This document shows positions 15,075-47,070 of a stretch of 64,000 nucleotides of DNA, piece by piece. The notes below the pieces were generated by a model. It saw nothing but the letters and a program-made list of their open reading frames with translations, did no database searches and was not told the DNA's origin. This DNA comes from Planomicrobium sp. YIM 101495 (lineage in GTDB: Bacteria; Bacillota; Bacilli; Bacillales_A; Planococcaceae): positions 496,001 through 560,000 of the forward strand of contig NZ_WLZW01000001.1 in assembly GCF_009707665.1 (NCBI RefSeq), given 5' to 3'. How positions within the stretch are numbered: the stretch's first letter is position 1; each line of letters begins with the position of its first letter. The translations under genes and the position numbers were made by a program.

Positions 15075-15467
15075 TTAGTTTGCTAGTTCGTCATTGAATT
15101 TCGATAGTACACCGTTCACAAAACGGCTCGACTTGTCGTCGCCATATGTCTTACTTAATTCGATCGCTTCGTTCATGATGACGCGCCCAGGTGCATCTTG
15201 CATGTAGACGAGCTCGAATACTGCCATGCGCAGAATCGTCCGCTCAATCTTCGGCAGGCGGTCCAGTGTCCAATTTTCAAGGTGCCTTTTCAAGCGCTCA
15301 TCGATCGCGGCCATGTTCGTGAATGTGCCGTGTACGAGCAACTCGTAAAACGAATCAGTCTCACCGTCCATGATGTGGTCGGCTGCTTGTTCGATTGACA
15401 TTTCCGTACCTTCTATTTGAAAAAGCGTCTGCAGGGCTTTTTCTCTTGCTTCGTGTCGTTTCAACAT
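15075..15467 (-). CDS. nusB: Transcription antitermination factor NusB
   Basis: A 130-aa all-helical protein that binds boxA of rRNA operons with S10. Family features are the basic N-terminus ([17 protein letters not shown]), [19 protein letters not shown] and the C-terminal [26 protein letters not shown] start behind AAAAGGAG. In B. subtilis it directly follows accC-yqhY; here it is separated from the asp23-like gene by about 1.1 kb of repeat DNA and a terminator, so it needs its own promoter. Confidence 0.95.
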
Positions 15468-15573: not shown

Positions 15574-15808
15574 GGGCGATTGGTGTGTGGGGAGTGAGCG
15601 GGGCGTAGTGTCAGTATCCGCTGCGTCGCTTCGGACAGGGCTCCCGTGATAAGCCGAGCTGAAGAACGCTCGTCTTATCACTCCGCCCAGTCCAAACCAG
15701 CTTCTCCGCTTTGGGTGTGGGTGAAGTGGTAGAGAGGAATCATTGGCATTTCATTCTATGTGATGGTGTTGGGATGAATGTTCAGGCGGCTGACTGCGTA
15801 GGCCGCTG
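15574..15808 (+). repeat. Composite repeat R1, module A (~235-nt structured unit)
   Basis: Homologous to the reverse complement of the 237-nt tandem units at 46431-47070. It contains a strong hairpin near 15645-15681 (GTGATAAGCCGAGC pairing with GCTCGTCTTATCAC, one mismatch) and ends with a second hairpin-forming block, GGCGGCTGACTGCGTAGGCC. No coding potential is evident. It sits between nusB and the asp23-like gene, which are contiguous in B. subtilis. Confidence 0.85.
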
Positions 15809-16187
15809 TGGTTCTAATTTGGTGAGTCGCAGGGTGAAATCAGTTATCGCAAAGGAGACCTCTTTTTACGTCAGAAGGACAAAAATAGGCATAGTTTTTA
15901 CCTCTATTTTGAAATTTGCGGGATTTCCGGCTCGAATAACAGGAATTTTTACCTTTATATCGTGGAAAGTCGTTCAATTTGCCATCTACGGAGCTAATAA
16001 GGGTATTTTTTACCCTTATTAGCTCTCATTTTGCTCATTCCTTCAAGATAAGAGGAATTTTTACCGTTAAGTGAAAGTACCGTAAATGGTACAGCACCAC
16101 TCATGCCAGCGCGGGATACGACTTTGCAACTTGAGGTGAGGCGTGTATGTTTGACTCGCCTGTTTTCAGGTACCAAGAAAAGTATTC
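15809..16187 (+). repeat. Composite repeat R1, variable phrase block
   Basis: Contains four degenerate copies of a 24-nt phrase built around GGAATTTTTACC. They begin at 15884, 15935, 15996 and 16047, with spacings of 51, 61 and 51 nt. Most copies can fold on themselves. The third copy is embedded in a perfect 15-bp palindrome. No gene is seen here. Confidence 0.75.
15991..16025. repeat. Perfect 15-bp hairpin inside the R1 phrase block
   Basis: GAGCTAATAAGGGTA and TACCCTTATTAGCTC are exact complements separated by five T. No U-run follows on either strand, so a simple terminator is unlikely. Confidence 0.8.
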
Positions 16188-16515
16188 CCGACTCAATCCA
16201 GAATGAGCATGAAATATGAACTCATTCACTACTGTGTGAGAACTTCTGCCTGACAGCGACGATGGCTGCTATGCTTCGATTATCCAAATCTTCAACATTC
16301 TATACCTTCCCCCTTCTCGAAGGAGCTGAGCCGGAATGGAAGAGCGAGCACGCTGGAGAATCAGAGTAGTGACGAGACCCCGCAGGTCGTCTTAGCGACC
16401 GAGGAGGCTCGGCGCTGCTCCTCTAGCGTGTGAAGCTCTGGAATGCAGGTCAGCCAGTTTCTAGTTAACTCATTCACCACAGGAAGAAAACTCTGTCACT
16501 CAGATCAGCCAGACT
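16188..16515 (+). repeat. Composite repeat R1, module C
   Basis: Homologous, in the opposite orientation, to 45848-46139. Shared blocks in order are CCAGAATGAGCATGAA, GCGACGATGGC, ATCCAAATC, CGAAGGAGCTGAGCCGGAAT with GGAAGAGCGAGCA, then CTCTAGCGTG with GCTCTGGAATGCAGGTCAGC. The two ends of this last part pair imperfectly to form a long hairpin (CACGCTGGAG/CTCTAGCGTG). The middle (about 16350-16420) differs completely between the two copies. Confidence 0.8.
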
Positions 16516-16530
16516 ACTTTCAAAAAATAG

Positions 16531-16565
16531 AAAAACGGCAGAAACATGAACGTTCCTGCCGTTTC
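16531..16565 (-). terminator. Terminator after the accB-accC-asp23 operon
   Basis: Stem AACGGCAG/CTGCCGTT with a T-run on the minus strand. It ends the acc operon before the repeat region. Confidence 0.85.
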
Positions 16566-16573
16566 ACTATTCA

Positions 16574-16969
16574 TTATTCGCCTTGCTGCGCATCAAAACG
16601 GATGCCTGTGATGTGGACGTTCACTTCCCGTGTGTGAAGTGATGTCATATTCTCAAGCGTCTGGCGGACTTGCTCTTGGATTTTCAGTGCTGTCTGTGGA
16701 ATGGAAACGCCATAATCCACGACGCAGTAAATATCGACTGCAAGGCCGTCTTCCATCGATTCCGTTTTGACGCCTTTGCCATGGACGGTTTTGCCGAGAC
16801 GTTCAGCTACACCAGAAGCGAAGTTCCCACGCATGCTTGCGACACCGCTGATTTCGGATGCGGCAATGCTTGCGACGATTTCCAGCACTTCCGGCGCCAC
16901 TTGGATCATCCCGAGCTGCTGGGAACCATTTGATTCCACTTGCACGTATGGGGCTGATTTTTCTGCCAT
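16574..16969 (-). CDS. yqhY: Asp23/Gls24 family envelope stress response protein
   Basis: A 131-aa Asp23/Gls24 protein (PEVLEIVASIAASEISGVASM, DIYCVVDYGVSIP, NVHITGIRF). In Firmicutes it is linked to accBC, and its loss in B. subtilis perturbs fatty acid synthesis; the exact role is not settled. ATG start after AAAGGAGG, 12 nt downstream of accC. Confidence 0.9.
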   Translation of the reverse strand: MAEKSAPYVQVESNGSQQLGMIQVAPEVLEIVASIAASEISGVASMRGNFASGVAERLGKTVHGKGVKTESMEDGLAVDIYCVVDYGVSIPQTALKIQEQVRQTLENMTSLHTREVNVHITGIRFDAQQGE

Positions 16970-27590: not shown

Positions 27591-28688
27591 TTAGTTTGAC
27601 CGTTTATAAAACGGTGTTTCAACAAATTTCGCTTTCACGCGCTTGTTCCGGATTTCGATTTCCACTTCCGTGCCGAGTTCAGCGAATTCCGTCGCCACTA
27701 ATGCCAGGCCAATATTTTTCTTAAGTGTCGGTGATTGTGTACCCGTCGTAACCGAACCGATCAATTCATCCTGGTGATACACTAGGTATCCGTGACGCGG
27801 GATGCCTTTGTCGATCATCTCAATGCCGATGAGCTTGCGTGGGACGCCTTGCTCTTTTTGCGCGGCAAGTGCTTCTTTACCGTTGAAATCGTCTTTTGCA
27901 AGTTTCACGACAAAGTTTAAGCCTGCTTCAAGTGGAGTGATTGTCTCGCCAAGCTCCTGTCCGTAAAGTGCAAGACATGCTTCAAAGCGGAGTGTATCTC
28001 GGCAGCCCAGGCCAGCTGGAACAACGCCGTCTTCCTTCCCTTCTGTCAAGATTGCTTCCCATAAAGCGATTGCCGCTTCCGGAGATGCATACAATTCGAA
28101 GCCGTCTTCGCCTGTATAACCTGTACGTGAAAGAAGAACTTTCTGCCCGAAAATTTCGACGTCCTGTTCAAAACGGAACGGTTTGACTGAAGATAGGTCG
28201 AATTCCGTCAGCCGCTGCAACACTTCTTGTGCAAGCGGCCCTTGGAATGCAAGAAGTGCATATTCGTCGGACAAATCCTCGATCATGACGTCGTCCGTCT
28301 TGAAACGGTTCAGCCATTCAAGGTCTTTTTCGATATTCGCTGCGTTGACGACGAGCAAGTAGTCGTCTTCTGCCAGCTTGTATGTCAGCAAGTCATCGAC
28401 CGTTCCACCATCTTCATAGCACATCGCTGTATACTGTGCTTGTCCTTCTTTGATTTTCGAAATGTCATTCGTCATCATTTTCTGTAGGAACGGAAGGCTG
28501 CCGCTTCCTGTGACATGTACCTCGCCCATGTGGGAAACATCAAACAGTCCGGCTTTCGTCCGTACCGCTTCGTGTTCATCTTTGATGCCCGCGAATTGCA
28601 CTGGCAACTCCCAGCCGCCGAAATCGATCGTCTTCCCTCCGAAGTTCGCATAACTTTCAAACAATGGAGTGCGTTTTAATTCTCCCAT
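27591..28688 (-). CDS. gcvT: Aminomethyltransferase (glycine cleavage T-protein)
   Basis: Transfers the methylene group from aminomethyl-lipoyl-GcvH to THF, releasing ammonia. About 365 aa. Conserved segments are [46 protein letters not shown] and [19 protein letters not shown]. The start ATG at 28688 (MGELKRTP) follows GAAGGAGG; the upstream frame runs into the riboswitch leader. First gene of gcvT-gcvPA-gcvPB. Confidence 0.96.
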
Positions 28689-28738
28689 CCTGATTCCTCC
28701 TTCGATTATGAGAAACACCGATCCGCTTGCCAACACCC

Positions 28739-28945
28739 AAAAAAGGACAGAGACCCCCCTTTCGGTTGGGTCTCTGTCCTGGTACCTGAAAGTTTACCGG
28801 TATGTTGCCCCGGCTTTCCCCGTTGGTAGCTGCAAGCAGCATTCTCCAGAGATGCGTCCTGTACGAGTCTTTTTGCCTGAGAGATTCATAAGTCCAGCTT
28901 ATTTGCTCCTTCGGCGACGCAAAAATCGCGTTCTCTCCCCGTACA
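28739..28945 (-). ncRNA. Tandem glycine riboswitch with intrinsic terminator
   Basis: The leader of gcvT holds two consecutive glycine aptamers. The first has GGAGAGAACG, GCCGAAGGAGCAA and GAATCTCTCAGGCAAAAAG. The second has CGGGGAAAGC and AAACTTTCAGGTACCAGG. A terminator follows at 28739-28780 (stem AGGACAGAGACCC/GGGTCTCTGTCCT plus T-run). Glycine binding is expected to let transcription continue into gcvT, as in B. subtilis. Confidence 0.95.
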
Positions 28946-28978
28946 TTCATCCGCTCAAGTGATCGAATTGTCAAAAAC

Positions 28979-45847: not shown

Positions 45848-46139
45848 TTCCGGCTGATTTGCATGTTCCTTTTGAAGAATGAAATCATTAGTGTCCGGCT
45901 GACCTGCATTCCAGAGCTTCGCACGTTAGAGGCGCTGAGAAGATGTTGGCCGAATGAAATTCGGTCAATGTCTTTGCTTGCTCGCTCTTCCATTCCGGCT
46001 CAGCTCCTTCGATAAAGGGAGTGGTGTCTAATGCTGGTGATTTGGATGATCAAAACATATCCGCCATCGTCGCACTCTCACAGAAGGTATCGGATGATAG
46101 GTGGGGATTTTAGTCTTCATGCTGATTCTGGATTTAGTC
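45848..46139 (-). repeat. Composite repeat R2, module C
   Basis: Inverted homologue of 16188-16515. Conserved blocks on the plus strand run from GGCTGACCTGCATTCC (45897) through CATTCCGGCTCAGCTCCTTC (45991-46010), GATTTGGATGAT and GCCATCGTCGC (46063-46073) to TTCATGCTGATTCTGG (about 46117). A second, weaker copy of the GGCTGA-TGCAT motif is at 45852. The core 45930-45980 is unrelated to that of R1 and forms its own hairpin (GGCCGAATGAAATTCGGTC). Confidence 0.8.
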
Positions 46140-46430
46140 GCGACTCACAGATTTTAATCGTGACTCAGGCACTTGCAGTCGCGACTCAACACAAACTAGT
46201 CACGACTCAGATTTTTCACTCTTGAAAATGAGAGAGCAGGAGAATGAATGTTGTACCTCACGAGCTTGAAATCGTATCTCACTGCCGACAAGTAGTATCT
46301 CGTCCATTTTCAAGCTCGATTCGATGCCAAGTAATAACTCGAGCAACTTAAGTAATATCTCACGACTAAAAAGTACTAACTCGACAAAAACGGATCTCTC
46401 CCGCTCACTATTTTCTCTCCAAAATAAGAA
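46140..46430. repeat. Composite repeat R2, 21-nt-phased phrase block
   Basis: Two families of short phrases recur in strict phase. GACTCA with flanking GTCGC starts at 46142, 46162, 46183, 46204 (steps 20, 21, 21). TAYCTC/TAACTC starts at 46254, 46275, 46296, 46335, 46356, 46377 (steps 21, 21, 39, 21, 21). An inverted repeat CGAGCTTGAAA (46261-46271) / TTTCAAGCTCG (46308-46318) spans part of the second array. No coding potential. Confidence 0.75.
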
Positions 46431-46667
46431 CCCCAGCGGCCTACGCAGTCAGCCGCCAAACAAATATGAAACACCCGAATTAGAATGAAACGCTAGCTGC
46501 CACAACACCGCCACTTCACCCACACACCAGCGAAGTGGCTGGTGTGGACTGGGCGGAGTGATAAGACGAGCGATTCTCAGCTCGGCTTATCACGGGAGCC
46601 ATGTCCGAAGCCGCAAGCGAATTTCTACGCGACACCCGAATCACTTTTCCACACATCGGCACTAAAA
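46431..46667 (-). repeat. Composite repeat R2, module A unit 1 (237 nt)
   Basis: First of two almost identical tandem units (about four differences in 237 nt from unit 2), inverted relative to 15574-15808. It carries the hairpin GATAAGACGAGC/GCTCGGCTTATC and the CAGCGGCCTACGCAGTCAGC hairpin block. Confidence 0.9.
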
Positions 46668-46904
46668 CCCCAGCGGCCTACGCAGTCAGCCGCCAAACAA
46701 ATATGAAACACCCGAATTAGAATGAAACGCTAGCTGCCACAACACCACCACTTCACCCACACACCAGCGAAGTGGCTGGTGTGGACTGGGCGGAGTGATA
46801 AGACGAGCGATTCTCAGCTTGGCTTATCACGGGAGCCCTGTCCGAAGCCGCAAGCGAATTTCTACGCGACACCCGAATCACTTTTCCACACATCGGCACT
46901 AGAA
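46668..46904 (-). repeat. Composite repeat R2, module A unit 2 (237 nt)
   Basis: Second tandem unit, about 98 % identical to unit 1. The near identity indicates recent tandem duplication. Confidence 0.9.
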
Positions 46905-47070
46905 CCCCAGCGGCCTACGCAGTCAGCCGCCCAGACATTTACCTCAACTCCATCAATAGAAAGAAATGAAGATGATCACTCACTAACACTTCTCCCACAC
47001 TCTCAGCGGAGGAGATGGCTTATCACAGGAGCCCTGTCCGAAGCGACGAAGCGGATTCCTACACGCCCCC
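46905..47070 (-). repeat. Composite repeat R2, module A unit 3 (diverged, internally deleted)
   Basis: Starts with the same CCCCAGCGGCCTACGCAGTC, then diverges and lacks most of the central hairpin. Its far end (CTGTCCGAAGCGACGAAGCGG) is closer to R1 than to units 1 and 2. This is probably the ancestral unit of the array. Confidence 0.75.

What the first reader, a model, noticed from the sequence alone, without database searches (positions are those of the whole stretch)
15574..16515. Large composite non-coding repeat (copy R1) breaking the acc-nusB gene cluster
About 940 bp without genes lies between the asp23-like gene and nusB, which are contiguous in B. subtilis. It consists of a ~235-nt structured module A, a phrase block and a ~300-nt module C. 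The same modules in the same order occur as the inverted copy R2 at 45848-47070. Module A and C blocks of 10-36 nt are nearly identical between the copies, although the middle parts are not. Two insertions into otherwise conserved gene neighbourhoods, with no ORF, suggest a non-autonomous mobile or amplifying element, or a family of structured RNAs. No named family was recognised.
Basis: partly seen in the sequence, partly recalled or inferred. Interest (0 to 1): 0.88.

Follow-up and report, generated by a model that had tools for sequence, protein, structure and literature searches.

The report
Mosaic hairpin repeats between bacterial genes
The 940-base gap without genes is one of at least 39 copies of an apparently unnamed repeat built from interchangeable hairpin modules, a large relative of known bacterial 'mosaic' repeats whose parts look swapped and, in related species, even turned round in place.

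Summary
R1 (15615-16488) and R2 (45869-47057) share the order module A, middle block, module C. At least 39 such loci lie in the 2.93-Mb genome; 33 carry A followed by C or part of it. Both window sites lack A and C in the 29 congeners examined for each, of 45. No match above threshold was found in Rfam, plasmid or phage records, nor in viral contigs with two exact patterns.

The family is wider than this genome. A compact A hairpin occurs in 46 of 46 genomes of the genus and 100 of 261 of the order, all hits in one family; its stem is kept by compensatory changes. The C core is spread through Bacilli. The middle block repeats every 21 nt.

Copies are mosaics: R2 shares A at 97% with one locus whose middle and C are not especially similar. 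In congeners the content of occupied sites differs between near-identical flanks, in 2 of 5 sites in opposite orientation. I read this as a BOX/BIME-like mosaic repeat, spread without genes of its own and reshuffled by recombination between copies. Insertion mechanism and host function are not shown.

The parts
15615..15827 (+). R1 module A (one unit); core hairpin at 15616-15724
   Evidence: HMM hit, 220.9 bits; covariance model hit, 113.3 bits (this copy was among those the model was built from)
15828..16183 (+). R1 middle (phrase) block, with recurring TTTTTACC phrases
   Evidence: lies between the A and C hits; best partner L031, 77% identity
15990..16026 (+). terminator-like 16-pair hairpin inside the R1 middle block
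   Evidence: consensus scan; not evidence of function
16184..16488 (+). R1 module C (long imperfect hairpin)
   Evidence: HMM hit, 297.4 bits; consensus fold
16492..16515 (+). probable partial repeat of the C tail
   Evidence: read by eye; similar partial C tails were HMM hits in other copies
15075..15467 (-). nusB, downstream neighbour
   Evidence: found at the same place in the 29 congener loci; gene name from the finding
16574..16969 (-). asp23-like gene, upstream neighbour
   Evidence: 46 of 46 genomes of the genus match; gene name from the finding
16532..16565 (-). terminator-like hairpin after the asp23-like gene
   Evidence: consensus scan
46897..47057 (-). R2 module A, first unit (internally deleted)
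   Evidence: HMM hit, 126.2 bits; gap in the alignment
46660..46860 (-). R2 module A, second unit
   Evidence: HMM hit, 186.1 bits
46415..46623 (-). R2 module A, third unit
   Evidence: HMM hit, 188.7 bits
46146..46414 (-). R2 middle block: array of ~21-nt phrases
45869..46145 (-). R2 module C, inner hairpin replaced by another nested module
   Evidence: HMM hit, 216.8 bits; alignment

Best explanation
R1 is a long form, so far seen in full only in this genome, of a family of mosaic intergenic repeats of this genus and family. Each copy is made of palindromic modules: tandem A units (one to three), a middle array with 21-nt phrases, and C hairpins with replaceable inner parts. SHOWN: many dispersed copies, fixed module order, stem pairing kept through compensatory changes, R1 and R2 sites without A or C in the congeners examined, mosaic relationships between copies, and different or inverted content at fixed sites in close congeners. 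INFERRED: copies spread without genes of their own; once seated between genes they are reshuffled by recombination or gene conversion with other copies, the repeated hairpin arms serving as homology, while A units and phrases expand and contract; this gives many genomes their own type. The A hairpin is constrained in a single-stranded form. Its mismatches point to the strand read from C to A, so a hairpin in a read-through transcript or in a single-stranded DNA intermediate is likely. Which of these, and the insertion machinery, are unknown.
For: At least 39 own loci; 33 of 39 have A then C (or part of C), 6 have A only, none C only. R1 and R2 sites without A or C in 29 of 29 congeners each. 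A hairpin in 46 of 46 genus genomes and 100 of 261 order genomes. Pairing: 13 of 19 pairs with double changes in a structure-free alignment of 35; in 122 distinct rows from congeners 96.8% of cells paired and 323 double-change cells against 82.8 shuffled, 0 of 500 shuffles reaching it. Strand: A-C against G-U mismatches 38:13 in congeners, 42:7 in the own genome. Mosaic: R2 and L042 share A at 97%, but middle 46%, C 60%, flanks 54% and 57%, all at or below the medians of all pairs; the two halves of C give uncorrelated distances, r = -0.002, while the two halves of A do correlate, r = 0.31. Same-site change: L176 and L184 keep the content (A 99%, cargo 96%) while L181, with flanks 92-98% like L176, has A at 86% and a cargo of another length. 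Inversion: L139/L175, same content (cargo 97%) turned round; L168/L178, other content in the opposite orientation. Nearest neighbour in the same genome for 53 of 53 own and 39 of 39 G009 A units. Phrase period 21 nt, z = 12.2 against letter shuffles.
Against: A and C distances do correlate weakly (r = 0.23, p = 0.028, 24 elements), so some spread as whole units is likely. L022/L026 share A and middle at 94% and 91%, which fits a recent unit copy as well as a long conversion tract. In the close group G005/G007/G049 the nearest A unit is in another genome for 20 of 28, and in G014 for 5 of 21, so genome-specific types do not hold everywhere. The C hairpin shows a weak strand sign opposite to that of A (49 G-U against 30 A-C, p = 0.04). 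At sites shared by the own genome and congeners, A units are no more alike than other pairs, which fits repeated insertion too. The rows were aligned to the model, some of them helped to build it, and 4 are weak reverse-strand echoes; relatedness is not controlled. Gene conversion itself was not observed.
Confidence: 0.7

Rival explanations
1. A MITE moved in trans by a transposase: the long form is a non-autonomous transposon whose ends have decayed. (Not exclusive of later reshuffling.)
For: Compact congener copies carry matching ends TATATAAGTTGAAC (up to one mismatch): 18 matches against 5 for the control in G005 and 18 against 6 in G007, among them seven facing pairs about 290-510 nt apart. 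R1 and R2 sites lack the element in the congeners examined.
Against: Own genome: 6 matches against 6 for the control; G049: 5 against 4. No conserved termini seen at the 39 own loci (by eye). No facing pair with a transposase-sized gap in the four genomes tested. No target duplication could be defined. Not AT-rich: G+C of R1 0.474 and R2 0.495 in a window of 0.485, where MITEs are described as AT-rich (PMC3049150, passage).
Confidence: 0.3
2. A dispersed family of regulatory or small RNAs kept for function; the hairpins act in transcripts of the C-to-A strand. (Not exclusive of the mosaic origin.)
For: Compensatory pairing; the same strand sign of mismatches in own and congener sets.
Against: Neighbouring genes are in all orientations: on mechanical ORF loci with both neighbours opposed to A-to-C, 10 with both along, 6 divergent and 4 convergent, R2 being one wrong pick. 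Copy number runs from 3 to at least 84 per genome (90 in G009 when more candidates were scored). No promoter-like site in the R1 region, but that scan also missed the nusB promoter-like region, so this is weak. Single-stranded DNA folding would give the same pairing.
Confidence: 0.3
3. REP-type elements spread by a RAYT (Y1 transposase).
For: Y1_Tnp in 29 of 46 genomes of the genus, in 22 of these one copy; genomes with it have somewhat more A hairpins (p = 0.043, relatedness not controlled).
Against: The own genome has no Y1_Tnp match. None of the 6 Y1 loci examined holds an A hairpin; three of them show another repeat (AATTGTGTG..GCACAGGGAC) beside the gene, by eye.
Confidence: 0.03
4. Ancient ordinary intergenic sequence.
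For: Two further own sites (codY-rpsB and argF) carry an A hairpin in some congeners in the same orientation.
Against: R1 and R2 sites lack A and C in 29 of 29 congeners each; tens of copies in the genome.
Confidence: 0.02

Closest known systems
BOX elements of Streptococcus pneumoniae and S. suis (passages of PMC3049150)
   Same: Composite of end modules and a middle part, tandem units in variable number, predicted stem-loops, non-autonomous, found nested with other repeats; can form reading frames.
   Different: Here the A unit (spacing about 239 nt) and a 21-nt phrase repeat in tandem; copies span 166-1194 nt; BOX ends resemble those of ISSpn2, while no such ends were found on the own copies. 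Sequences were not aligned to BOX.
BIME/REP mosaics (start of the abstract of PMC2817692 in a search listing; further details recalled)
   Same: Intergenic mosaics of palindromic units in many copies.
   Different: BIMEs have regularly spaced REPs in alternating orientation; here A and C keep one orientation within a copy, and no RAYT link was found.
Correia elements of Neisseria (passages of PMC3049150 and PMC10969869)
   Same: Dispersed non-coding repeats; inversion has been reported for Correia elements, as seen here for compact congener copies.
   Different: Correia have 26-bp inverted repeats around up to 156 bp of internal sequence; no such ends were seen on the long form.
bcr1 of the Bacillus cereus group and stem-loop families such as Bhal-1 (table passages of PMC2267715)
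   Same: Dispersed structured repeats of Bacillales.
   Different: Short units (167 nt for Bcr1, 74 for Bhal-1 in that table); sequences were not compared here.

Membership tests
BOX element | composite in fixed order with a tandem module in variable number | tested here: met
   33 of 39 own loci A then C or part of C; one to three A units
BOX element | boxA/boxB/boxC sequence | not tested
   no box sequence was aligned
BOX element | terminal repeats like those of a resident IS | tested here: inconclusive
   no conserved ends seen at own copies by eye; one end pattern not above control; IS of the genome were not surveyed
MITE | terminal inverted repeats | tested here: inconclusive
   above control in G005 and G007, not in G049 or the own genome
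MITE | target-site duplication | tested here: inconclusive
   ends could not be placed to the base; flanks too diverged
MITE | autonomous partner with the same ends | tested here: inconclusive
   none seen in four genomes at up to one mismatch
MITE | AT-rich | tested here: not met
   G+C 0.474 (R1) and 0.495 (R2), window 0.485
REP/RAYT system | Y1 transposase gene flanked by the repeat | tested here: not met
   no Y1_Tnp match in the own genome; no A hairpin in the 6 congener Y1 loci examined
Rfam 15 RNA families | match above gathering score | tested here: not met
   none in R1 or R2; 8 further loci gave only a T-box in L199, not at its A array
Insertion sequence | own transposase gene | tested here: inconclusive
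   one ORF of 90 codons or more inside R1 (15711-16022 +, 103 codons, TTG start); not searched against protein families

The most novel reading that the evidence does not exclude
A chromosome-wide exchange system: fixed intergenic docking sites hold hairpin cassettes that are swapped and inverted by a dedicated, still unknown mechanism acting on folded single strands, comparable to a dispersed shufflon, with the 21-nt phrase arrays as protein binding sites.
Probability: 0.08. Interest if true: 0.85.

Novelty: new variant of a known kind. Interest (0 to 1): 0.56.

Why it matters
It appears to be an unnamed repeat family that covers a whole genus and reaches other genera of its family, larger and more modular than the BOX and BIME elements it resembles. 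Because many congeners are sequenced, one intergenic site can be followed while its content is swapped, inverted or expanded. That makes an old question testable: whether bacterial mosaic repeats spread by transposition or are remade in place by recombination. The strand bias of stem mismatches and the 21-nt phrase period give concrete handles for function.

Tried and rejected
RAYT/REP explanation: the own genome has no Y1_Tnp match, and the six congener Y1 loci examined hold no A hairpin. Named RNA family: none above threshold; in the permissive scan the best match by bits in the R1 region (27.6, gathering 90) covers the asp23 terminator. Plasmid and phage records: no match; viral contigs: two exact patterns, no match. 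An exact 21-mer of A in genome contigs gave one stretch, in a Gemmiger record; by eye a chance match in what looks like a gene; records near the own genome may be left out of that scan. Peptide coded by the phrases (21 nt = 7 codons): stop-free runs exceed Markov-shuffled ones modestly (z = 2.85 on the + strand, 1.84 on the -); the later positions of the unit vary without clear codon pattern; not pursued. Replication-orientation bias: by hand count, assuming that base 1 is the origin, 31 of 43 A clusters of G009 run against the leading strand, but 12 of 28 in G014; not general.

Shared sites: at codY-rpsB 5 of 29 and at argF 11 of 29 congeners have an A hairpin. The next gene was not found in 3 and 6 of these 29 loci, and two codY loci had little or no gap sequence to search. 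Several codY-rpsB gaps of 460-640 nt hold no A or C and were not explained. L028 and G009's L192 lie next to the same gene but with different genes on the other side; three further pairs lie near, not at, the same site. Retention and repeated insertion could not be told apart.

Papers: six searches were run. Those by repeat name, sequence word or genus listed nothing that I recognised as this family; only open-licence papers are held and few print sequences.

Limits of counts and dropped rows: one search scored 40 of 60 candidates, at most 84 per genome, at most 14. Locus L047 matched only the middle block and is not among the 39. Searches used the 53 A and 27 C hits with model spans over 185 and 235 positions; one search used the 24 elements with both. 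One search left out 4 weak reverse-strand echoes of A3, which are still in the rows. One search left out 4 C copies with a replaced inner hairpin. One search left out copies of 130 nt or more and duplicates. Loci were returned for 30 of 46 genomes and for 30 of 41, the own genome included.

Full report
OBSERVATION. R1 (window 15615-16488, +) and R2 (45869-47057, -) each contain module A, a middle block and module C in that order. R1 has one A unit; R2 has three, one internally deleted. A search of the window's own genome with R1 gave 104 matches (40 of 60 candidates scored). After fetching the surroundings, profile searches gave 72 A hits and 47 C hits, which cluster into 39 loci. Clusters were broken wherever the strand changed; still, 33 of 39 contain A followed by C or part of C, six have A only and none has C only. 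A is about 213 nt and occurs in tandem with a spacing of about 239 nt.

SITES. All 46 genomes of the genus have the asp23-like gene and sodA. Among the 29 congeners returned as loci for each site, none has A or C there: gaps of 137-242 nt (28 of 29; one of 627 nt, with other nested modules read by eye) against 1106 nt in the own genome at R1, and 110-154 nt against 1419 nt at R2. In the congener asp23-nusB gaps printed I see by eye a terminator-like hairpin and a promoter-like region; R1 lies between the counterparts of these, so the boundary between transcription units probably predates it.

FAMILY. A covariance model of the A core hairpin found it in 46 of 46 genomes of the genus, 3 to 84 copies each (at most 84 candidates were scored; 90 in G009 with more scored), and in 100 of 261 genomes of the order, in 5 of 19 genera. 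All hits are in the own family; the non-matching genomes shown are of that family too, so the sample may hold no other. The model was not run beyond the order. The full R1 sequence matched the own genome and 19 of 23 congeners, and none of 16 other genera of the class; in congeners it matched only the A core and a 45-nt core of C. The C core of a congener is found in 39 of 299 genomes of the class, 16 of 118 genera. No tool named the genus. In congeners I saw a compact form (A hairpin plus a C-like shell with nested cargo, about 300-500 nt) and arrays of A units followed, in some, by phrase arrays and tandem C-like units. No match was found in 72,556 plasmid and 50,697 phage records or, with two exact patterns, in viral contigs, and no Rfam family matched above threshold.

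STRUCTURE. In a MAFFT alignment of 35 A cores 13 of 19 predicted pairs show a change on both sides. In 122 distinct rows from congener loci (aligned to the model, some of them used to build it, 4 being weak reverse-strand echoes) 96.8% of cells are paired, 15 of 19 pairs show double changes, with 323 such cells against 82.8 in shuffles; none of 500 shuffles reached this, and sliding the partner destroys the signal. Relatedness is not controlled. Where pairing fails, A-C exceeds G-U on the A-to-C strand: 38 to 13 in 84 distinct congener stems, 42 to 7 in 41 own stems. On the other strand these are G-U pairs, so the constrained single strand is probably the one read from C to A. Cells are not independent events, so p values are only indicative. 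Module C is a long hairpin with a replaceable inner part; its mismatch sign is weak and opposite. The middle blocks of 33 own loci show a sharp 21-nt period, z = 12.2 at lag 21 and 8.2 at lag 42 against letter shuffles; 36 units picked by a motif share a core in their first half and vary in the rest.

MOSAICS. Own copies are not clones of one another. R2 shares an A unit at 97% with L042, while their middles (46%), C modules (60%) and flanks (54%, 57%) are at or below the medians of all 741 pairs; L042's middle is closest to L053 (82%), R2's middle to L052 (73%); R1's middle is closest to L031 (77%), but its A unit matches L033 (85%) better than L031 (79%). Distances measured on the two halves of C are uncorrelated (r = -0.002, p = 0.49), those on the two halves of A correlate (r = 0.31, p = 0.007), and A against C correlate weakly (r = 0.23, p = 0.028; 24 elements). 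Some pairs, such as L022/L026, share A and middle together.

IN-PLACE CHANGE IN CONGENERS. Five sites could be compared between congeners. L139 (G049) and L175 (G005) carry the element in opposite orientation between flanks 94% identical, with A 92% and cargo 97% identical: the same element turned round. L168 (G005) and L178 (G007) are opposite between flanks 95-99.8% identical, but with A 89% and cargo 78%, so other content; L185 (G049) at that site has the orientation of L168 and a longer cargo. L176 (G005) and L184 (G049) agree (A 99%, cargo 96%), while L181 (G007) has A 86% and a cargo of 226 against 142 nt. L169/L177 and L066/L182 keep orientation. So 2 of 5 sites show opposite orientation. 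Two own sites outside the window carry an A hairpin in congeners too: codY-rpsB in 5 of 29 and argF in 11 of 29, in the same orientation as in the own genome (gene names recalled from the protein sequences). At argF these 11 have one or two A units, and G009 has four. At such shared sites own and congener A hairpins are no closer than the average pair of those genomes, so common descent with homogenisation and repeated insertion cannot be told apart.

INTERPRETATION. The data fit a non-autonomous mosaic repeat of the BOX/BIME kind that sits between genes and is remade by recombination among copies. The nearest A unit is in the same genome for 53 of 53 own units and 39 of 39 of G009, but for only 8 of 28 in the close group G005/G007/G049. 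Known parallels: BOX elements are modular, nest with other repeats and can form reading frames (PMC3049150, passages), and Correia elements have been reported to invert (PMC10969869, passage). A transposase partner is not excluded: compact copies in G005 and G007 have matching ends. A RAYT is not supported for this genome. A function in RNA is possible; no transcript data were available, and the mix of neighbouring gene orientations (mechanical ORF calls) argues against a dedicated cis-regulator.

LIMITS. Gene calls around own copies were mechanical, so I do not claim that all 39 loci are intergenic; neighbours were checked against congeners for R1, R2, codY-rpsB and argF only. Element ends could not be set to the base. 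Counts per genome are lower bounds where candidates were capped.

Noticed in passing
window 28855-28950 (-): Glycine riboswitch aptamer, 74.1 bits (Rfam RF00504), upstream of the 27591-28736 (-) ORF.
   Followed up: no
L218, L219, L220 (congeners G009, G018, G011): Y1 transposase genes with a short repeat AATTGTGTG..GCACAGGGAC on their flanks, a REP/RAYT-like arrangement read by eye; Y1_Tnp is in 29 of 46 genomes of the genus, with no match in the own one.
   Followed up: partly
L139/L175 and L168/L178: Compact elements in opposite orientation at the same site between 94-99.8% identical flanks.
   Followed up: yes
L097 (G010, asp23-nusB gap, 627 nt): A different nested module (GCTCCTGCATCGCT..GCTTCGTCGCAAAGA) occupies the R1 site in one congener, in several copies by eye.
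   Followed up: no
L025 and L053 left ends; inside C of R2, L031, L034, L045: The same kind of nested module sits beside A in two own copies and replaces the inner hairpin of C in others; read by eye.
   Followed up: partly
L148 (G017) about 2270-2990: Four tandem C-like units follow an A array and a phrase array, by eye.
   Followed up: no
G000:C2:199853-199965 and G000:C4:48959-49074: C-core matches in the own genome outside the 39 composite loci.
   Followed up: no
L047 (G000:C2:53741-53928): A locus that matches only the middle block of R1, without A or C hits.
   Followed up: no
middle blocks of own elements: Of 54 successive phrase pairs under 60 nt apart, 42 are spaced by a multiple of 3 and 41 of these are stop-free in that frame, giving heptads such as ESRLQVP; probably incidental.
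   Followed up: partly
G009 A clusters: 31 of 43 A clusters (hand count) run against the leading strand if base 1 is the origin, and none lies between 1.57 and 2.33 Mb.
   Followed up: partly
L235, L238, L227, L229, L233 and others (codY-rpsB gap): Gaps of about 460-640 nt without A or C in several congeners; what fills them was not looked at.
   Followed up: no
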